From: Datnioides undecimradiatus
Taxonomy: Eukaryota; Chordata; Actinopteri; Lobotiformes; Datnioididae
Direction of reading: 5' to 3'
Length of the DNA: 64,000 bases
Assembly (NCBI GenBank): GCA_008933995.1
Contig: WARS01000044.1
Span: forward strand, 1,446,866-1,510,865
The notes below the pieces were generated by a model that searched no databases, was not told where the DNA came from, and saw only the letters and a program-made list of their open reading frames with translations. The position numbers were made by a program, and so were the translations under genes. Below, in pieces: positions 10,759 through 31,500 of the stretch (position 1 is its first letter; the number at the start of each line of letters is the position of its first letter).

Positions 10759-11247
10759 CTAAGGACAGGTGATGCGAGATGCACAGACAGAGGGAAGACC
10801 GAGAGAACATGGCTTATCATTCCATTTCAAATCTCCCTCAGAGTTTGTTTGAATACAGTCTTCATTTCCCCCATTGTTGTCTGGCTGACTGTTAGACCAA
10901 AATCCAAAGTCCACTGCAGAACCATCGGACCACATCCACCCTCCTTCCTTCTGGGTGTCACTGAGTCCGATCCAGGTGAATCCCATAGAATGGTCAAAGT
11001 TGCTGATCAGGGATTTGACGAAATTCTGTTCCTCCAGACTGTGGATGGACACCAGGTTGGCTCTTTCGGACACACAGAAGAGCTCTGCATCAGCCCAGCT
11101 TAGATGTGTGGCGACGTACTTGTAGCAGCGGCCGTTGAAGTTGAACCAGAACGCGGGACAGTTGCCACGCTGGAGCTTCACTGGAAGGTCATCTGCAGGA
11201 GTCACGGCACCAAGAGCCAGACCAAGCAGGAAGAGGATGAAGAGCAT
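10759..11247 (-). CDS. Secreted C-type lectin, QPD type, intronless
   Basis: A single 162-residue frame encodes a whole secreted C-type lectin-like domain. A signal peptide (LFILFLLGLALG) is followed by CPAFWFNFNGRCYKY, an ELFC segment, WIGLSDTQKEGGWMWSDGS, the sugar-binding SQPDNNGGNEDC and WNDKPC, and the closing Cys near the C-terminus. QPD usually selects galactose-type sugars with calcium, and WND supplies further calcium ligands, so binding looks possible. Size and layout match the fish ladderlectin/lactose-binding l-2 group of mucosal or plasma lectins. Most animal CTLD genes have introns; this one has none, but it has its own TATA box and poly-A signal. The exact subfamily and ligand are inferred. 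Confidence 0.85.
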   Translation of the reverse strand: MLFILFLLGLALGAVTPADDLPVKLQRGNCPAFWFNFNGRCYKYVATHLSWADAELFCVSERANLVSIHSLEEQNFVKSLISNFDHSMGFTWIGLSDTQKEGGWMWSDGSAVDFGFWSNSQPDNNGGNEDCIQTNSEGDLKWNDKPCSLGLPSVCASRITCP

Positions 11248-11330
11248 GTTGCTGTCAGTCTCTTTTTGAGTCTGTGGGGAATCTGATCTGCAGTGTTGGA
11301 TGTTATTAAGAATCTTTCACTTTCCACTTT

Positions 11331-16448: not shown

Positions 16449-16567
16449 TTATGCACGTGGCTCCAGTTTGTGCGACAGCTCGAAAAGCGTCTGCTGATTG
16501 TCGATAATGTGCAGGTAGTGAACGCTGGCCCTCACCTCTGCACTGTCGACCCCGATTACCTCGTTGC
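16449..16567 (-). CDS. rapgef5: rapgef5 exon 26 (C-terminus)
   Basis: The exon encodes [20 protein letters not shown], then PRA and TAA. This is the conserved tail of the Epac/Repac catalytic domain (human HLYVIDSQQALFELSHRIEPRV). Acceptor is TCTCTTAG; phase 1 in. Confidence 0.95.
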
Positions 16568-19500
16568 CTAAGAGATGGAGACAACATGCGCACATTAGTC
16601 AGACAGAAGAGCATTCTGCTGGACACACACATTCACACACATCTGGTACAAACACAGACTGTACTATGGCCATGAGGAGACTAAAAAGGCTGTCTGGAAC
16701 TGGTTGCTTGGAAACTGTTAAGAGAAAACAGCAGGAGAGACACCAGACTCAGGTACAGGTGCAGTTCACACACTCAGCTGCAGATGGCAGTAGAGTCCTG
16801 AAGGTCTTGTAACCAAGACCATGACATTAGGACAACTGCAGCAGCTGAATTCACTCAAGAGGTGAGAGGACTCACCTGGCTGGTCACTCTGGCAGTGGCG
16901 AATCATTCTCACTGTGTCTGCAATCATATGCTGTTGGTTTAAGAGAAGACATGTTGCATCAGTGCAATATGGAAACAAGCAAGTCCTTATTAATTTGAGG
17001 TAAGATTTGTACAGTAACTCAAAATAACAACAAATAATATCTGAACCGTTTTTTTAATTAAAATGAGACAAAGCTTAACCGCAGCTGTCCTCTATTGCAC
17101 GTTACCCCTACTATTATTTCTTTAATTGAAATGTACCTGTAAACGTGTGACAATTTCACTTTTTGTAACAATGCAACGGGTTGAAATTAAAAACATAAAA
17201 TTTTAAATAGTTTGGTCTCAATGAATTTCCTCAGTATAGATTTATGTGTCAGTCAACCTGGTGAACTGTCACAAACGGCACTCTTTCTTCTATTCCCTCC
17301 ATCACTGGTCACTGCCTCAGACATTACAAATGTACCCCTTTCCACTAACATGATTATCACTAGCTCTCTCAAAGAAGGCTTGATTATCTTTGAAATAGTT
17401 TTAGTTTGAGGCAACGAGGAATTTAGGCAAACTGGCTGCCATTAAATTCTCCCTAGAGGGTAAACCCTGTGAAGTAACTACAGTAGGGAATGTCTTGGAT
17501 ACGTGGTTGCGGTGACTGGCTAGTGAGTTTTTTCCTTACGTGACAGCACCTGATGGTTACTGATGTTTGTATTTTCCATTCTTAACTTGTAAAAAACTAA
17601 AAAAAGTTTCTTCCTTTCAGGCGAAGTGGTGCTGATTAATTACTGTGAAACAAACGGATGATGGGAGCAGCTGTTGCTCAGTACTGGCTGTCGACTAATC
17701 ACACGGTTGGCAGTTGGATCCCTGGCTCATCCTGTCCACTTATCAATGTGTCCTTGGGCAAGAAACTGAGCTTTAAATTGTTCCGACTGCTTGGGCCAGC
17801 ACCTTACATAGTAGCTAGCCGTCATCAGTGTCTGAGTGCCTGTGTAAAGCACTTTGGATTAAGATGCTATACAAATAACTGCAGTGATATCCCATTTCCC
17901 CTATGACATGACATATCTGTTGACGTATCTCATGTACTTGCTGACAGTGTAGCAGTTGCTCCACTCATTTAATATGTTGCCTCTGCTGTGTGACAATTTT
18001 AAAACATGAACACTGACAGACTTCACAGAACTGTCTCAACTCACCAGCTTCTCAAAGTTGACCAGGTTGTCATGGAAGGTCTTATTTCCCTCGTGGATAA
18101 AGGTGATATCTAAGAGCACGGGGCAAGTTTATTAAAGGCCCATTCACTAAAAACAGTGAAGTGTGTTTGTGTGTGTGTGGAGGGGTTAGAGGTGATACCT
18201 TTCAGGAGAAGCGGCATGAAAGGGATCTTGGGAGGTTTCATCCTCTTAAAAGCTTCCCTGTAGGCTTTATGGTTCAGAGATGGATCCTGAAGAGAGACAG
18301 AGAAGGGGAAGATGGAGAAAGATAGAAAACAAAGTGAAAGGACACGATTAAAAAAAAAAAAAGAAATGTCAAGATTTGATTTGGACATCAAAAGAGAAAC
18401 ATATAAAGCTCTGCATCTGTTTCTACGTCTCACCGTTATGAGCTCCAACTCTGAGAAGAGCTTCTTGAACTTCCCGGGACATTTCTGAAAGGAAGATGTT
18501 GGGTAAGACTTTGATGTACACACATGTATAACCAAACAAAACAACAACAACACGCATGCATACCTCCCATGTCTGGTTGAGTCGGCTGACAGCTGCTGTG
18601 TTCAGACCCATGATGATGGCAAATGCAGAGTTCAAATTTCTTTGGGCTTTACAACTACAAATACACAAAAAATGTAAAAATGAAAGTTATTAAGTACAAA
18701 GATCTTGATGCATTTGTGTGTATTTATGTGTGGGTTCTTACTGAGCTGCGATCTTGATGAACTTCTTGAGTAGCTGTACTCGCTTGGTGAGCGACACACA
18801 CATTAGCACCTCAGACATGACCCACTGCTGAACCTCGTTGCAGCGCTGGAGCAGGACAGAGAGCGCTGCCGTGTGGCCCGTACCAGGAGCACGGCTGAGG
18901 GTGTAGTACACCAGCTCCTGCTGCATGTGGAGACAGGGATGAGTGTGAGTAACAACGTCATTGATTAATCATTTAGTCAATACAATATCAAGTTGCACAT
19001 TTTCTCAGCCCAGGGTGACATCTTCATAATGCTCCTTTTGTCTAACCCACAGTCCAAAACACAAATCAAATAAAGACAAAAGCAGGAAATGCTCACATCC
19101 AAAACCAGGCTCAAGCGCCAAACGTTGCCTAGATTTAGATACCATAACATCCACACAACTGTAAGATGCAGCCTGTGCTCCTTCCTCTGTTTCTCCTTTT
19201 TTACATTTTCCAAAATACTCAGCTCTTCCTGGCAGCTGCTCAGCTGCAAAAAGACTTTCTGTTCCCATGATCCAGCAAGTCTTGTACGGTATTTGCATCT
19301 TTAATGCTTATGTTCCAGCAATCATGAATATAAATTTATTATAAACTATGTGCACACACCACATGAATTTATTTGTGTGTGTGTTTGAGAGTACATACCT
19401 CATGGATGGATTTGAAGAGGCTCCAGTCCAGGTGTGTGAGAGCAGCTGCCACATCCCAGGTGTTTATACCTAAGAGCCGCACCGGCCTCCTGCTTAGCTC

Positions 19501-22500
19501 AGCACTGTCTGTTAAAGGAGGCTGCACACACACAAATGAAAGTTAAGAAAATAGAAAAACATAAAAAATAAACAGTACATACTGTGGACACACCCAGGTA
19601 CTTACTATCTGCAGACATGGGGTATTTCTAAGTAAACTAAATAAAAACAATATCTAACATTCATAATACACTTCAGAAAAATGAGCCCATATGGTGATTC
19701 AGCCAACATGATATACAACAATATAGCACAGAGTCATTAGAGCAAGTGCCTCCAGCCAACACACAAGCAGAAGTGAAAGCTGAGAGGGGAGTGGTGATTC
19801 CTATAACACAATTGTTCCGTCCAACTCTGGTTACAGGTCACAATATTAACAACTATTGTGCTTTTGTGAGCCTGACAATGGACTCAGCAGACAATATGCT
19901 AAATAAAACTGAATACTTCCTGCCTACCAGCCTAATAAATGGACAGTAGACTTTTAAAATCGGTCCCATTTAGAGGACCTGCTGGTTTGTTTATGACAGA
20001 CAGCTGAATATATGTATCCAAACAAACCAAACATCTCCAGGGATGCAGTTGTGAAATGGCCAATTGCAAAATTATTCAAAACTGAGGCTCTTCCGTGAAA
20101 AACACTTTGACCTGATACAGCACTTTCCAGTCCAGCTGTCACAGTTGGGCAACAACAAAGTAATTGTGGCTCACACTATTTCTCTCCTTTTGAGTCAGAG
20201 TTAATAACAATCACCTGGCCTGAGTCCTTTTCGGCTTGCTTATAATGCATGACTCATCGTAACACTGTGAAAATATGTCAGGTGGGGAATAAGGATATTT
20301 ATTTTCATGCCTGATTTAGCTAGATGATGATACAGAGGCGACCAGCAATATCAGAGGCAGCCAATGCCCATATGAGCAGAGTTGGTTTGCTATAGTCTCT
20401 ATCAACAGTTGTGAGAAAGATTGAGGGTTTTGAACAGAGGCATGCACAGAAGAGAGAATTTACCAAGATCTCAGTGAGATCCCTGCGACAGGCCATGAGC
20501 TTTCCCTGTGGGGTCAGAGATTCTGAATACACACAGTCACTGGGCTGCAACACCCTCCGTTCTGTGGAGACAATACATGCAGAAACAAAGAAAGAGAGAC
20601 TATGATTATAACTTCCAAACCAGGGGTGCTTTTTCTTTTTGAGCTGTCAAGAGGTTACGACTGAATCTAATTTCAATGAACAGAAATTATGACGTGATGG
20701 AAAAAGTGCCCGGCATTTTGAGTCAGCTTCAACTCTGCATGGACTAGGTATCTAAGTAATGAGGGGACAGTTGAAATGGTTAACAGTCGCAAAATTGTAT
20801 TAATACCTTATATACTAGCTTCAGGTAATAGATAAGCGGATCAATAGTTGGGTAAAAGTGTTCCATAAATGGCTGAAAGAACCAGTTTCTTGTTTCTACG
20901 ACTTCAAAGCATGACTGCAACCTTGATCAAATGGATGTGAACACTGAATATTTAACTTAAAAAAACATTGTAACAATAGACACATATCTAAACAATACTG
21001 TTAAATAACATCAAGCGTATAATCTTATTATAAGAACATTTGCTTGTATTGTATGGAGTGTGTGACTATCTGTTGTGTGTATTTCTTTGTGTGCTTGTGT
21101 GTGTGTACCTCCAGTGTGTGACACCACAGCGAGCACCATGTCCTCCTCTGCTCTGTCCATTTTCAGAGCTACAATTCTTATCAGCTCATGGGCCTCCATG
21201 GAGGGGTGTGTGTGGACACTCAGGTAGGAGTCGGCACTCACGTACACACAACAGATAACTGAAAGATACAAAGAAAATGGCTAGCACACAAATACGGAAA
21301 TGCTGTGAAATCACAATGAAGCAGATGCAGACACAGCTCAAGTATTTCGAGCGAGACTTCAGCTAATTTTTGTCAAGTACTAAAGCAGCCGAAATAACTG
21401 AACACACTGTATTTAAGCAATTTGCATGTGCAAAACTCACAGACTATCATTATGCATAATTTTGCTCAGTAGTGGGCAGTGTGTTTTTGCTGTGTGTAAA
21501 AGTAAAAGTGCGAAAGTGTTTGTTACTTACCCTCCCTGGTCTCAGCCGGTGGACTTCGGAGCTGCAAACAGTTCTCCTTCAAACTCAACTGCTGGTACAT
21601 TTGTTTACTCTGACAGAGAGAGCAGAAGACACATGGTGATGTATAAAACTGTATTTATTCACTGCACACCTAATATTTACCTAATTGATATTTTTATTTA
21701 TACAATAGTATAATACAAATGGCAGTATCAAGCAGCATCGTCCTCCCTCTGACTTACCTTTTGGTTTGGAGGACAATCATCCACAGTGCTGAAAGACAGA
21801 GACAAGCACAGGAGTGATGATGGATGCAGATAGGCTTTTAAACAAACAAAACAGTGAAAAGCAGTCATTTAATACAGCAAAGTCATTGTGCAAAGACAAA
21901 CACGCTTACTGTCTCCGACGTAGAAGTTTCTGGAACTCCTTTAGGTCTTTTTCCAGTGTGGGGAACTCATACAGATCTTCTAAAACACACCTGTACAGGG
22001 TCTGACAGAGAAAAGAAACCAAATCCGTAAGATCACACTGACGATCCCAGGTTGAGGATGCTGGCTGATGATGAGAAAGGGCAAATAATTAAATAAGTAA
22101 CATTTAAATGTCTCTGTCTTTGGTCTGTTGATGTTCTCAGACCTTGGCTCAGTTTCTAACCATCATTCTACTCTGGCTCCATATCAAACAGATGTTGGCC
22201 TGACTGTCTGCTTGAACAATCTTGGAGGACAGCACATAAATGTATTAAGCCGAAAAAAGGAAGGAAAGAAACATCACAAAATCGAATGAAATTGTATAAA
22301 CCAAAAATGAAATCTGCAAAGCCACATATAATGAGAGGGACTCAGAATATGTTTTAATAATAGTACTGGGCTTCCATTGAAAGCACATTTTAAAAAGTGT
22401 GTTGTTGACAGAGGTGAGTGAGAAGAAAATGGTGAGTGAGAAGAAAATGTATCTGTTATCCAATGTTATTCAATCAAGGTTACCTTCCATTAACATTGCT

Positions 22501-25500
22501 GTTCACTGGTAAACAGGGCAAGACAAGAGGGAGGTGTGTGCAGCTCACTTACTGAGTATCATCACAAGTAAATTATGCTACATGGGTAGATTACATTAAA
22601 GAAACATCACACAAATTCTGTACCATGTACTTAAATCAGTGACTAGGCATGCTCTGTAGTCTCTGTGTGGCAGAGAATTAGTATGTAGCATGAAAGCTCA
22701 GGAGGCAGTAACAGTCATACACACACACACACGCACACCTGCTTATCGCTGTCATTGACCCGCCGTAGCCTCCCATCCCAATTCCCCCCTCATTCCTCTG
22801 TTACTAGGCAACTATCACCTGGGTTACGCACTCCATATGAGATTATACCCATGCCAACCCTCGCACTTTGGTATCCATGGCAACCAGCATCGAGCAATAG
22901 AGCCGTCAGATTACCGAGGGACAAGTGATTGGTGAGAGTGAGTGTGTGTCTGTATGTATGTGTGCTTGTTTTGGTTGAGTGTGCGGGGACGTCCGCATGT
23001 GGGACTGTTGTTTGTGTGTGTGTCTCTTCTCTTTCAGTGTCATGGTTGTCGCAGGGATTCGTTTCCAATTCAACCGACCATGCCACAGTATAGCAGGAAC
23101 ACGGTGGATACACACAGGATTTGTCATGAGTAACGTGATAATGATGTGAGACAAAGAATCGGCATATGCGTTTCTTTTTATGTGCTATGTGTCTTTGTGT
23201 TTTAAAATGGATGTAATGGCTTGTGTGGATACTGCATTATGCACATAAACTAAGTGATAGGTTCTGTTTTCAGTTTCGAATATTCAGCCTTAGGGGGAAA
23301 AAATGCCATACGTCACAAAATCAAGTAGATGGTAGTAAAGGTCCAGAGTGACAAAACATACGAACAATCCTCCTGGTTAACTTTAATTAGTCTCATAAAA
23401 GAAATACCTCCACACAAATGTTTTGATTATACCCCGCATACGTCATATGATACACCAGCCTGTAAGTGCCTGTATTTGTCTGTTTCTTATTAGCTTGTTT
23501 TGTCAGAAGGATAAGATAAAAACATCAACTAGGTTCCCCTGTGGGAGGAAGATGAAACACAGATAAATGTGAGAAAAGATAAATGAGTCTTCTCATGTTC
23601 TTCAGTAACACAAGTAAAAGGACTCCAGAGGATCAGACTCATTAAATCACTGAACTACAAGTGAATGAGTGAGAAGAGAGATTAGAAAAAATAAACAGAT
23701 GTGGTGATGAAGGCAAGTTGTACCATACCTTCATGAAGCTCCTGACGTGCTCCTCTTCCTTGAGGAAGTCCTTGTAGAGCCTGCTCCAGTGGGACACCAG
23801 CTGCAGCACCTTACGCTTCCTGAAGAGGGCATCTTTGCCTTCCTCCTGGCCCCTGCAGCGGGCACTGCTATAGGTGAGGGTGGTCAAGGAGACAACAGAG
23901 GACAGCGTGGAGACTGAAAGGATGTGTACAAGAGTGTGTGTTTGGGCTAATGTGTGTTTGCCAGAAAGGATATTGTCCCAGCAGAGCCTGACAGAGATCA
24001 TGGGTGGACATGAACACCAAATAGGTCAACAGGAAGTCATCCAGCAGCATTTCTGAAACACAGGAAACATATCATCTGTCATTTTCAACGCCTGCACTGC
24101 ACTCTGTGGTCTGCTGGGGGAGCAACACTGGAGTCAGTGACACCAGCAGAATTAATAAACTGATTAGGAAGGCTGGCTCTGTCATTGGCTGCAGACTGGA
24201 GACTTTTGAAGCAGTGGTGGAGAGGAGGACACTGAACAAACCGTTATTGATCATGGATAACCCTGACCACCCTCTCCACCATGTTTGGGATCAATCAAGT
24301 CTATCTATCTATCTTTAACTTATTTGTGGAAGGAAGATGTGGAGAATCACACTAAATGTGTGTGTTTTGGTTTCCCCCTTTAACTTCCCATATCACTTTT
24401 TTAAGGGGCCCTAAGTTGCTTGAAAGTAGTCCAAATCATTAATTATTTTTAAGCAAAGTATTAAATGAGTAAAATGATCAAATATGTGATGTGAAAGGGG
24501 CTCCTCATACGGACTCTACACAGTTCCTCTCAGGTCAACAGAGCTTTATATCGCCTTTGAGCTCACTCTTTTGTTTTTCTGGCCCACAATTTTCATGCTC
24601 TGGTTCACTGTCATGGCGACACGTTGTACACTATGTGCAGGGATGATCAACAGACAGAAAAAATTATAGGATAGTAAATATTGTACCTAAGTTGTGCACC
24701 AAGAAACTCCAACATTGCTCCATGTCTGTTGGATGTGTATATACGTCTGTTAATACAGTCATCAACTTAAAAAATGATAATGTGTTTCTTCTGGCTGAAT
24801 CATCCCATCAATTACATCAATATCTGGTTTTTGATTTAATTCGCATTTCCTGAATTCTCAGCCTGACAGTACCTTTGGAGACTTTGGGATCACCACTAAA
24901 GGTTTTGTGGGTTTGACCAAACTTTGGTTGTACACCATGAGAACGGATTTTAAAAAGGTTAAAAGGTCAGTTGCTGATGTTACCAGGTGGTGAAAATCAA
25001 ATTAACTACACCAACACATCCTTATGAAACAGAGCTGAGATTACCTGATTTTTCGATATGTTTTAAATGAACTTAATACCTTTGTATACCTTTGTTGTTT
25101 TGGAGAATTATTTAGGATTTGAAACATTTGAAAGTTTAAAGAAAAAGTTAACTTTTGCCAGATCAAAAAGGTACAGGTTTTTCTTTCTTGGCTCATAATC
25201 TCAAGAACTTCAAAAACTAAAATTCATCAGTGTGGAGCGGCTAATGTGCAATTGAGACAGCGAGCGTGAGTGTGTGAGTGTGTGTGTGAGACTCAGCAGG
25301 TGTTCAATGGGTAAGAACTGAATATAAACAGGCCTCGTGGCAGATGGGTAATGAGCCATTGTTGGTGGTTTGAGGGAGCTGTAATGTGTGTGTGTGTTTG
25401 TGTATGAGAGTGTGTGTGGTGTCAAACTCTTGCTCTGAGAAAATGTGTGACCCAAATATGGCTCTGTCGGGCAGAGAGCAAAGAAATCAATTATAGAAGA

Positions 25501-28500
25501 CTGAGCAGAGGCCGTGGCATTAATATTTGATCAACCATCTCCTCTTTAGAAATAAAAACACAACTTTTCTCAAGAAATATTTTTAGGCAGGTCTGACTGA
25601 ACTTATTGCTTTTTCAAAACCCTTGACTTACTTTCATTTTCCATTTTCTTTTTTGTGCTGGTTTTCAATCTGGGTGTGGAGCTCCATCTTGACCAGCTAT
25701 CAGTCTTTTTTTCCTGCTCCCCAACCCCCTGTTTTTTTTCATTCTTTCTGGTTTTTCCCGCTTCTCCTCTCCTCCTACGCTCACCCTCTCTCGGCTCTCT
25801 GTGATGATAAATATCCATTTTCATCTTTAACATATGCCCTCTGCGTTTGCCCGTTGGCACGCACAAAGTCAAACACATTCACTCATAGACACAGCAACAC
25901 ATATCCAAACACACGTGCGCACACACCGATACACACAGAGCAGGCTGATGAATAACTCATTCAGTTCTGACCTTGGGGACTTTATCTCTTGTGGGAGAGA
26001 CAGGAAAAGGAGAGAAAGTGTGTGTGTGTGTGTGTGTGTGTGCGTGTGTGTGTGTGTTGAACTAATCGTGGTAATCTGCTGCTATGTTTTTTTGTTGTGT
26101 GTGTGTTTTGTGTGTACGTGGGGAGGGGTGGTTGGGGTAATCACTCTCCCTCTGTGGAAGCGTGTTCGAGCCTGTTCAACATGCTGCGCGGCTAAGCCCG
26201 CTAAAACGGCACACTGATGCTCAGCACCACCCCAGAGGGCCTCCACACACACACACGCTCAACCTCATGCTTATTCAACGCACATAGACCGAAAGATGCA
26301 TGCACACAGATACGGAGACAAAGACAGCCAAACAAGCACATACACTCTTGATCTGCATCCCTGCTTCTGCCTCTCCCTCTGCATCCACCAAATAAATTGT
26401 GTCTTTTCTCTTTTGAGTGAATAAATATCAGGCGGTCTTCTCCCACAAAGACCATCTCAGTTCTGACTCTCTCTCTCCTACATTCATCTCGCCCTCTTTC
26501 TTCGTTCGCTTCCTGCAATTCAGTGAGATGGCTCCCTGTGGACTGCTGGGAACTGGTGGTGCTGAGGAGTTGATACATAAAGACGCCTTGTCTTAATGCG
26601 GCACAAACAGGCAAGAGCAGCTCTTATAAGATACAGGTTGGGACCCAGATGTCCCTGTGTAATAAAATTATTATTTTATAGGACCAGGAATATATTGTCA
26701 AGCTCAATTTCACTAAAAGAAAAGAATTTAAGATCCACTGAGTAACAAATGACATGGTACATTTTTGACATGTTTTTTTTTCTTAAAGAATGACTCATTA
26801 TCTGACTTTCCCTGCATGTAAGGGATAAAATGTTCAACCAACTCTGATCAAACAGTTTCAAATAATCACAAAACAATTAACTGATCAATTTAAAATTAAA
26901 AAAGACACATGAAAAGACTATTTTGATTTGACTATCAATCTTTTTGTCTTTTTCATTTTTTCTAACATCTTACAAACAAAATGATTAACTGCTTATGTGC
27001 AAAAAACATTTAAGATGAATCAAAGTGAAAATAATTATTACATGCAGCCCTGCTATCAATGTGGTCTGTGCACCAACTACACTGCTTCTAAAACAAATGG
27101 CAAAACATTTCCTGAGGTAAAACAGTAAAGTTGTATTGTACCTGCTGCATTGTCAAAGACCCCAGTAGTTATAAGGTAGACTTGAGGATTGTAAAAATGA
27201 CATATGACAGTTAACAAACCACTGAAACAGTCCGCAGCAGAAATGCCTACACCCCGAGGGAATCGTTTCACAAACTCATTAAAGCATTTAACCCCTTGAA
27301 TGTTCCTCATATTTGCAGGCAGTCACATGGCTGAATGAAGCCACACACGCACCTGGATATGGTGTTAAGCGGTGACTGACTCACGCAGCAACACAAAGAG
27401 GCACATACACACACACACACACAGGTTGTATGATCAAGGGGAAGAGCATACCTCTGTGGTTTTAACCCACATCAGGAAAAATGTAAGAAGACAGAGAAAG
27501 GTCCAGGGCTGTGCTGTAACTTGTTGTGTGGCACTGAAAATGAAACTCCTTTGAATGAGAGGGTGGGGAGTTGGGGAGTTGCTTAGTTTTACCTTGGGTC
27601 AAACAGCAGAGGAAAAAACATCTCAACTGCTTTATTTTTAAACCAAATTTTCCTCCAACTTTTGTTTCACAATGATTTGTTATCTATAATATGGAGATTC
27701 AGCCACATTCATAGATGTGTACAGTGTTTTTGAGACGTGTGTTCACCTGCATGCATGTCAACAAACTTACCGCTCTCCCTGCTCTCTGGCGCCCCTCTTT
27801 GGTCGTCCAACCGTAGGTCACTTAGCAGATGCTCCAAGATCTTGAGCGGTGTCCCTGACACCACCACATACCTATAAGACGAAGAGTCGCAACAATCTTC
27901 CTCATTAGAGAACGAACACCAAGTATGATCACTTCCATGCCTCCAACCTCCTTCCCTCTCTTCATGTTTATTCTCTTCCACATCGTCGTCATCGATGTAG
28001 CGAAAATGAGGAACATCAAATGTACAGATTTCTGAGCGGCTACCATCATCTTCATGAGTGCTTTCCTCATCATCTACGTCCTCCTCATCTTCATCATCTA
28101 CGTCCTCCTCTGCCTGTGCAAGCGTGGCTAGCACAGTGGTCATCTTCATATCTGAACACTTCCAGTTGATCAGACCTCATCTACAGCTTTGCATAGCCAG
28201 GAAGAGTGCGCCCCTGCGGGGTAAACTGCCTTGTCTTCTGCCCCTGTCAGCTAAGAGCTCCACGGATTAAAACCCTTTCTCTGACAGCTCCTACAGTAGC
28301 ACTCGGAGAGAACCGATTGGTAGTGAAGATGCTGTACACACACACACACACACACACCCACTTAACCTGCCTGTCACTGACACTCCCTGCATTGTGCCTT
28401 AGGTCTTGGCACACACTGGCTTAAATACACACAAACACAGACTATGCACAAAGAAACTAAGAGGAAGTGCACAAGTACACACATGCAAAAGCGCGCACAC

Positions 28501-31500
28501 AAATACATACACAATCCTAAACCCATACGCTGATTTGTAGAAAGAAGTAAACCAGTCTTGGTTTCATCTTTGTTTCCCTTTCAGCCAAAAACAAAAAAGC
28601 CATTCTCTTCTTCTCACTGTGCACCAGAAGCTAAAGCATATATTATCTTAGACAAACCACACAGTGTTGACAGCACTACCATTATTTTGCATGAAGGTGC
28701 GTGTGTAGTTGCAACTTGTGATCCAGAAGTTAAAAAAAAAAATTAAAAAAGAGGGAGGAGTATGATGATTGTGTTTTCTGTTGCCACTGTTGGTTTGGCA
28801 GGCTGTTATTATGTAGGAGGAGTGACTGACCTCTTGTCGCAATCCTCCTCTCTGGAACCACCCCCTGACGATGTGGGTGAGGGCCGGTCCGACGGCGACG
28901 TCACTGCTGAGGTCACTCTCTGCAACACCAATACGTCCCGTCCTCTCTCCTTTAGGCAGACCCTCCCCACTGCCTCCTGAAAGAGGGTAAAAAACAGAGG
29001 GACAACCTGTCACAGACTGAAGCAAGGACAAAGCCGCTTGAGGAAGACATGTTTTTATAACAGGAGACAGTTTTAACATCAACAGGCAATAAAATAAATT
29101 CTGGTGCATCTGCCCACATTATCTGTACAATCACGGTGTGTGCAATACAGTGCAGACTGGAAAACCTGACCAACACATCAGCCACATACAAATATCAGTT
29201 TTAGTCATATGTTTTAAACTCTTAACAAATCGGGCCCTTTAATTCAAGATTGAAACATCTGTCTGACACATAGGCAAATACAGTTCACACTCTTACTCTC
29301 CTGTCCAGACACAGATTCTGCTGGCACCATCAAAGGGAAGTATTGCACTTCCTGCATTCAGAAGAAATGGTATTGTGTAATAAATAACAATGGGGACAAC
29401 AAGGGAATGAGGCCTGGCACTTGAAATGATCTCCTGCTCCAAAAATGAACAGCAACTTGATCTGTGACTCCAGGACATTACACACACACACACACACACC
29501 TGCAGTGTGAGTGCCGTGGCAACAGAGCTCCAGATGGACAAAGGAGCATAATAAGAAACAACCTGAGGAGGAGAGAAAAAGGAGAAGAGAGAGGGACATC
29601 AAAGACAGAGGACAGGAGGAGGAGGAGAGATAAAGAAGCAATGTCTCTCCTCCAGCTGCTTGCTGCAGTCTCTGTCGCAGCCAGAGGGATCAAGCAGCAA
29701 TCACAACTGACAGAGAGCTCTAAAAGCAGGGCTGTTTTTCTGTTGCACCGTTTCTCGCATGTATACATGCACGCACACACGCACGCACGCACGCACGCAC
29801 ACACATACACACAAAAAGGACTGCATGCAACAACATGCCACAATGACATAACAGAGTGATGTTAGCAAGTCTAAGGTTGTAACAAAGCGCCAACAGATTG
29901 TAATCAATAACTGTGACAGCAATATTTAGAACTTCAATTTTATTTTAGACATCATGGGGCCCCAATGAAGAGCACTACTGATAAACAGATAATTCTTAAA
30001 CATGCAAAAACAAGTCAATAAACAGGCCAGCAGGGACAAGTAACCACACACCAACACACACTCTGTCTGTGATTGTCTGATGAAAGGAGTTGTCTGATTC
30101 TGAGAGACTGCAGGTGGGGTCTGACTAGAGTCAGACAAAACAATATGCCCCAAGTGCTGTGTGTGCGTGTTTGCGGACGTGCCCTGATGACTCACATACT
30201 ACTCGAGCAATATCCAGATGTTCAGTGCACTTAGGTCACTGAATTCTCTCCCTCAGGTGTGCTGCTGCTGTCAAGGTCTCCTCAAAAAACTAATCTAATT
30301 GAACATCATATGATTTTTGTGTTTTTCTAGAGTTATACAGAATATTTCTATTTATTTCAACACTTTAAAGAAAGAATCTTTATTTGGGGATCTTTACTGA
30401 TAGTGACTCAATCTTGGCTGAGCACTTGAAAAGACAAAACTGGAAGTGTTCAGGACACCACAATCCAACTCAGTTGCAGCTTCTTGTATTGTAAGTTGAA
30501 TTTTGCAGAAACTTAACTGAAATTAAATATTAAAATGTAATCATGCGTTTAGGCCTTCTATCTAGCTCACCTCTGTTTATCCTTTCAATGTGAATAAAGC
30601 ATAAGGCAAAAGATAACACTGCATTACTACCCGGCCCTTAGCTGACCCACGGACTTCAAACAGCCCAAACTCTGAAATCCACATAAGATTTACAAAAGAC
30701 TATGAAGGTTTTCACTGTGAACCCACCTGTAGACAAAGTTTATTTTGAAAGAACCATGGCCATTACATTATGTAACAGGCTGAAATCCAATGTCCTTAAG
30801 GATTTGCAAGACAGAGATGCTTACAGCTGATAAATAAGGCAGTGATGGCTGATGTAAAGAGATCTGACACTGCATGCCATTAATTACAATTTAAGCTGGC
30901 ACCCAGACCACACCCAGCGGCCCAGATGTGATGTCAAGATAACAAGCTTGGTGGTTAAGTGGTCCAAAGCAGACCTGACATTAGACCCCATCATCCAGGG
31001 TTCAAATATGAGCCAGGAGTCAAACCCTTAATCTCCTCTGACCTTTCCTCTCTCTTCACCATTGACTATCTTATAAAGCATTACAAGTACTGTGAAAATA
31101 GGAAAATCAGACAGATTATGTAACCAATTATACAGTAATCACTATCATAACAAAGGGGAAGAAAATGTTGCACTGTGTTCCTGATACAGTAGCAAACTGT
31201 TGATCTTTCCGATAACACACTCACTCTCTTTACACAGATGCCAAGAAAAACAACTCAGAGCCAAGAGTGGAGCAACACAGCCTCGTAACACAGACTGAAG
31301 ATCAGACAGCTTCCAGAAAAATTCCCAAAGCAATGGTAACTTACCCACAATGGTTATGTTACAATATGTTAATACTCCTGAATACACACAGAAATAATCT
31401 GTATAAAATTTAAGTGCAAACAACTGCTTACAAGAACACCATTCACCATTTAGCTTGAGAAAGAATGCAAGTCATGTAAAATAAAAATATACAAAGAGCG

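What the first reader, a model, noticed from the sequence alone, without database searches (positions are those of the whole stretch)
23874..23973. A 100-nt U12-type AT-AC intron inside the rapgef5 REM domain
On the minus strand the intron starts ATATCCTTTC and ends CTCAC, with TCCTTGAC 10 nt from the end at the branch position. All three are minor-spliceosome hallmarks. Joining at these sites restores LLGHYSS, parallel to LLRHYS in human RAPGEF5; no GT-AG alternative keeps the frame. AT-AC introns are a small minority even among U12 introns, and this one is very short. It would make rapgef5 expression depend on minor-spliceosome activity.
Basis: partly seen in the sequence, partly recalled or inferred. 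Interest (0 to 1): 0.72.

Follow-up and report, generated by a model that had tools for sequence, protein, structure and literature searches.

The report
Minor-spliceosome (U12) intron in rapgef5

Summary
On the minus strand, 23973-23874 is a 100-nt segment with the U12 5' splice site ATATCCTT, a branch site TCCTTGAC whose A lies 10 nt from the end, and an AC terminus. Removing it restores the REM domain. Of 8650 open-frame excisions scored, it ranks first against EPAC2 from the PDB (136; next 135) and against recalled human RAPGEF5 (246; next 238). Of 15 introns in my gene model it alone looks U12-type; the other 14 are GT-AG.

Three parts are overstated. 58 of 254 GT-AG pairs do keep the frame, but with weak donors and worse REM matches. 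At 100 nt it is fourth shortest of 15. AT-AC ends make up 12-22% of U12 introns in three fish genomes.

A U12 AT-AC intron shared by fly Epac and human RAPGEF3 is in print, so this is an ordinary new member of a known kind. Not shown: splicing in RNA, the same intron in other RAPGEF5 genes, or whether the RAPGEF3 intron has the same position.

The parts
23874..23973 (-). U12-type AT-AC intron, 100 nt, phase 2
23965..23973 (-). U12 5' splice site ATATCCTTT, 9 of 9 matches to the script's consensus RTATCCTTT
   Evidence: ATATCCTT is given as the nearly invariant site in PMC2831892 (passage)
23883..23890 (-). U12 branch site TCCTTGAC; branch A at 23884, 10 nt from the intron end
   Evidence: PMC2831892 gives TCCTTAAC (passage), so 7 of 8 with G for A
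23974..24052 (-). upstream exon, part of the REM (RasGEF_N) domain
23729..23873 (-). downstream exon, next part of the REM domain, followed by a GT donor
23868..23870 (-). TAG that ends the frame if the intron is kept; no stop lies inside the intron in that frame
23865..23869 (-). two AG dinucleotides ending 6 and 9 nt past the AC end; as acceptors they would drop YS or YSS in frame
16449..28149 (-). rapgef5 gene model used here: 16 coding exons, 607 aa, REM and RasGEF domains; the start of the first coding exon is a guess

Best explanation
It is a minor-class (U12-type) AT-AC intron in the REM domain of a vertebrate rapgef5 gene. By established knowledge of the class (recalled), U11 and then U6atac would pair with the ATATCCTT 5' site, U12 would pair with TCCTTGAC leaving its A as branch point, and the AC 10 nt further on would be the 3' end; the two exons then join in phase 2 as GGA CA|C TAT (GHY). 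If the intron is kept, translation runs through it and stops at TAG 23870-23868, giving 187 aa in this model, with an incomplete REM and no GEF domain; 13 introns of the model lie downstream, so decay of that transcript would be expected. Shown here: the sites, their spacing, the frame, the restored homology and the retention stop. Inferred: that the minor spliceosome removes it in the cell, and the effect of retention.
For: Site letters and spacing. First of 8650 open-frame excisions against EPAC2 and against recalled RAPGEF5. The spliced segment hits EPAC2 at E 1.6e-10 and Pfam RasGEF_N at 36.5 bits (cut-off 28.3); read through, the upstream exon with the intron gives 24.5 bits (below cut-off) and the intron with the downstream exon hits no family. 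The full model gives RasGEF_N 42.8 and RasGEF 189.6 bits. U2 donor score -11.4 bits at this site against 3.1 to 12.5 at the other 14 introns; 5' U12 match 9 of 9 here and 3 to 6 of 9 elsewhere; best branch-motif match in the last 40 nt 8 of 8 here and 5 to 7 of 8 elsewhere (donor frequency table recalled). +5 is C, not the G of U2-spliced AT-AC introns. Literature: the defining motifs, a bias against phase 0 in U12 introns, and a U12 AT-AC intron in Epac/RAPGEF3.
Against: No RNA data. No RAPGEF5 gene of another species could be compared. The branch A has 10 nt after it, slightly under the published optimum of 11-13 nt (how that paper counts was not seen). Against EPAC2 the margin over the next excision is one point (136 against 135). 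One GT donor in the downstream exon (23814, 4.6 bits) outscores three of the model's own donors (3.1, 3.8, 3.8), though it lies beyond the retention stop.
Confidence: 0.95

Rival explanations
1. An AT-AC intron removed by the major (U2) spliceosome, as described for some sodium-channel introns.
For: AT-AC ends alone do not define the class (PMC2831892, passage).
Against: Those sodium-channel introns all carry G at +5 (passage); here +5 is C and the rest of the site is the U12 consensus. U2 donor score -11.4 bits. A near-perfect U12 branch site lies 10 nt from the end.
Confidence: 0.02
2. A U2 GT-AG intron with nearby weak sites that deletes or adds residues in the REM domain.
For: 58 of 254 GT-AG pairs leave the frame open; 34 of these leave at least 50 aa and were scored.
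Against: The 11 GT donors from 24030 to 23865 score at most 0.5 bits; the best of all 16 in the region is 4.6, at 23814 in the downstream exon. The best GT-AG product ranks 237 of 8650 against EPAC2 and 2432 of 8650 against recalled RAPGEF5.
Confidence: 0.02
3. No intron: a damaged gene or an assembly error, with the segment an insertion in a dead copy.
For: No transcript evidence was available.
Against: The 16 exons of the model keep one open frame and the 14 other introns have GT-AG ends; two Pfam domains score above cut-off. A blastn of the segment against the window found no other copy, only short weak matches (best E 0.055, 19 nt).
Confidence: 0.01

Closest known systems
AT-AC U12-type intron of fly Epac (CG3427, tabulated as intron 11 of 16) with a human U12 orthologue in RAPGEF3 (Table 2 of PMC2831892; section 8 read)
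   Same: Same subtype and same gene family; the GEF domains of EPAC1, EPAC2 and RAPGEF5 cluster together (passage of PMC8534922).
   Different: Different paralogue; whether the intron lies at the homologous position in the REM domain could not be tested.
A-type (AT-AN) minor introns that depend on CENATAC (PMC8280824; abstract passage and other passages seen)
   Same: AT-AC ends.
   Different: That set was measured in human cells; nothing is measured here.
U12-type AT-AC introns of fish genomes (Table 2 of PMC7367187; sections 17 and 18 read)
   Same: AT-AC is 22% of U12 introns in zebrafish and 12% in Takifugu and in Tetraodon.
   Different: Whether this very intron is listed in such databases was not checked; databases and supplements were not available.

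Membership tests
U12-type intron, AT-AC subtype | 5' splice site ATATCCTT at +1 to +8 | tested here: met
   8 of 8
U12-type intron, AT-AC subtype | Branch site like TCCTTAAC close to the 3' end | tested here: met
   TCCTTGAC, 7 of 8 to the printed motif, 8 of 8 if either purine is allowed (recalled); A 10 nt from the end; published optimum 11-13 nt, so slightly short
U12-type intron, AT-AC subtype | AC 3' terminus without a distinct polypyrimidine tract | tested here: met
   Ends TTGACCACCCTCAC; the absence of a tract was judged by eye, and the stretch is rich in C
U12-type intron, AT-AC subtype | Excision restores a conserved coding sequence | tested here: met
   Rank 1 of 8650; RasGEF_N above cut-off spliced, below it or absent in the two read-through pieces
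U12-type intron, AT-AC subtype | Removal depends on U11, U12, U4atac and U6atac | not testable with these tools
   needs RNA data
rapgef5 (RasGEF family) | REM and RasGEF domains on one model | tested here: met
   Pfam RasGEF_N 42.8 and RasGEF 189.6 bits; no RA domain was reported at E 0.001
rapgef5 (RasGEF family) | Closer to RAPGEF5 than to EPAC paralogues | tested here: inconclusive
   tblastn with recalled sequences gives higher identity to RAPGEF5 in three GEF exon stretches (55.0 against 42.7, 52.5 against 43.3, 85.2 against 70.4%) and equal in one (57.1%) (the aligned stretches are not identical in extent); the N-terminal [11 protein letters not shown] matches recalled RAPGEF5; no tree was made
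Conserved Epac/RAPGEF3 U12 intron | Same position in the protein | not testable with these tools
   no animal genomes held; no supplement look-ups allowed

The most novel reading that the evidence does not exclude
The intron could have tandem acceptors. The AC end is followed 6 and 9 nt later by AG dinucleotides, and using either would remove YS or YSS in frame from the REM domain (AT-AG splicing). Together with a retention product that stops within the first six bases of the next exon, this would make one minor intron a three-way switch on Rap exchange activity. Nothing here shows such use, and mixed AT-AG pairs are reported as disfavoured (PMC3584512, passage).
Probability: 0.05. Interest if true: 0.35.

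Novelty: new member of a known kind. Interest (0 to 1): 0.15.

Why it matters
If spliced as predicted, rapgef5 joins the genes whose expression can fall when the minor spliceosome, and by analogy CENATAC (its depletion affected 92% of A-type minor introns in human cells, PMC8280824, passage), is impaired. It would also fit an old U12 intron shared across the EPAC/RAPGEF5 paralogues, which is testable by comparing gene structures. The practical point is annotation: gene finders that allow only GT-AG ends would mispredict this exon pair (inference).

Tried and rejected
GT-AG, GC-AG, AT-AC, AT-AG and GT-AC pairs in 24052-23729 were enumerated (its listing was cut in the middle, so not every row was seen). 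Excisions of 30 nt or more that leave the frame open and at least 50 aa were scored whatever their ends (shorter products were dropped before the count). None beat the reported one.

A nested U2 intron (twintron, as in prospero) was considered and rejected by eye: the acceptor-like CTTTCAG (AG ending at 23914) has only one GT upstream of it inside the intron, about 15 nt before it, scoring -1.4 bits.

Five further RTATCCTT motifs lie in the window. None has TCCTTRAC followed by AC or AG within 50-3000 nt: the only such pair found is the reported one, listed twice because an AG also falls in range.

Rfam at gathering thresholds found nothing in the window. The sigma-70 promoter and terminator scan is irrelevant to a vertebrate gene.

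Literature: searches for RAPGEF names with U12 or minor-intron terms showed no paper on a RAPGEF5 U12 intron; two papers with passages on Epac/RAPGEF3 were found (PMC2831892, PMC2952598). Searches listed only 15 of 100 and 20 of 57 papers. The two hits look incidental by title and were not opened. Intron databases and supplementary tables were not available, so none of this shows that the intron is unlisted.

Full report
What is there. The minus strand from 28149 to 16449 holds a 16-exon coding model for a vertebrate rapgef5 gene. Exons were found with tblastn using recalled EPAC2 and RAPGEF5 sequences and their ends read from the sequence. The model translates to 607 residues without an internal stop and hits Pfam RasGEF_N (42.8 bits, cut-off 28.3) and RasGEF (189.6 bits, cut-off 23.1); no RA domain was reported at E 0.001. 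The start of the first coding exon is a guess. The species is not known; a fish is a guess from the gene's compactness and was not tested.

The intron. Between exons 24052-23974 and 23873-23729 lie 100 nt that start ATATCCTTTC and end TCCTTGACCACCCTCAC. PMC2831892 gives the class's 5' site as ATATCCTT, its branch site as TCCTTAAC and its acceptor as AC (passage). The match is 8 of 8, 7 of 8 (G for A, where I recall either purine being common) and AC. The branch A at 23884 has 10 nt after it; PMC3584512 gives an optimum of 11-13 nt (passage), so it is slightly short by my count. The intron is in phase 2, and U12 introns are biased against phase 0 (PMC7367187, passage).

Frame and homology. Removing the 100 nt gives LLGHYSS. 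The spliced 74-residue segment matches EPAC2 (PDB 3cf6, E 1.6e-10, 43.9 bits; four EPAC2 chain sequences among 7 hits at E up to 1, the other three at E 0.5 or worse) with no gap at the junction, where EPAC2 reads ALVAHYHA. Pfam RasGEF_N scores 36.5 bits spliced; read through, the upstream exon with the intron scores 24.5 (under the cut-off) and the intron with the downstream exon hits nothing. Of 8650 excisions of at least 30 nt that leave the frame open and at least 50 aa, with any end letters, the reported one ranks first against EPAC2 (136; next 135) and first against recalled human RAPGEF5 (246; next 238).

Alternatives. The statement that no GT-AG pair keeps the frame is wrong: 58 of 254 do, 34 of them leaving at least 50 aa. 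They are poor. The 11 GT donors from 24030 to 23865 score at most 0.5 bits, against 3.1 to 12.5 for the 14 other introns of the model (donor table recalled). The best of all 16 in the region scores 4.6, more than three of the model's own donors, but it lies at 23814 in the downstream exon, beyond the stop that retention would expose. The best GT-AG product ranks 237 of 8650 against EPAC2 and 2432 of 8650 against recalled RAPGEF5. A U2-spliced AT-AC intron is unlikely because the +5 G of such introns (PMC2831892, passage) is absent.

Chance. The 5' motif alone is unremarkable (RTATCCTT 6 times on both strands; mean 3.7 in 60 simulations, 11 of 60 reach 6). The motif pair alone is not very rare either: 22 AT-AC pairs 50-3000 nt apart in 200 simulated windows, both strands. 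At the junction that the protein requires it is: 0 of 200,000 mononucleotide shuffles with the end dinucleotides fixed had both motifs; in a second set of 200,000, 163 had the 5' motif and 231 the branch motif.

How special. Intron lengths in the model are 79, 87, 89, 100, 121, 147, 148, 272, 308, 478, 547, 942, 1114, 1727 and 3718 nt, so 100 nt is ordinary here. AT-AC ends make up 22% of U12 introns in zebrafish and 12% in Takifugu and in Tetraodon (PMC7367187 Table 2). Table 2 of PMC2831892 lists for fly Epac an AT-AC U12 intron (number 11 of 16) with a U12 intron in human RAPGEF3, and its text says the human orthologues are of the same subtype (section 8 read). The GEF domains of EPAC1, EPAC2 and RAPGEF5 cluster together (PMC8534922, passage). 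The likeliest history is one old U12 intron shared by these paralogues. That is inference: the position in RAPGEF3 was not available, and no other RAPGEF5 gene could be read.

Consequences. If the intron is kept, the frame stays open through it and ends at TAG 23870-23868, giving 187 residues in this model. Retained minor introns were shorter than unretained ones in mouse tissues, and shorter ones were also more often retained in human (PMC6717393, section 8 read); 92% of A-type minor introns responded to CENATAC depletion in human cells, by retention or by use of major splice sites (PMC8280824, passage). Dependence of rapgef5 on minor-spliceosome activity is thus a fair prediction, untested. 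Two AGs ending 6 and 9 nt past the AC would give in-frame variants lacking YS or YSS; nothing shows that they are used.

Verdict. A real and well-formed U12-type AT-AC intron by sequence; a new member of a known kind, and perhaps already listed in intron databases that could not be consulted.

Noticed in passing
window 10762-11316 (-): A 185-residue stop-to-stop frame that holds a C-type lectin domain over nearly the whole profile (Pfam Lectin_C, 84.9 bits, positions 3-106 of 107) with no intron inside it; PDB relatives include LY75, mannose receptors and fish type II antifreeze proteins. It could be a single-exon or retrocopied lectin gene.
   Followed up: partly
window 24101-24314 (-): Just upstream of the exon at 24052, a short GATA run (24313-24302) and a TTGATTGATCCC segment resemble, from recall, the end of a fish LINE; blastn found no second copy in the window.
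   Followed up: partly
window 28831-28978 (-): A stretch ending at a GT, upstream of the model's first exon, is open in two frames, one ending in [28 protein letters not shown]; it may be an upstream rapgef5 exon. One frame around it, 28651-29118, hit no Pfam family.
   Followed up: partly
window 20298 (-), 5878 (-), 11745 (+), 36311 (+), 44804 (+): Five further RTATCCTT motifs without a TCCTTRAC branch site in range; the total of six is within chance.
   Followed up: yes
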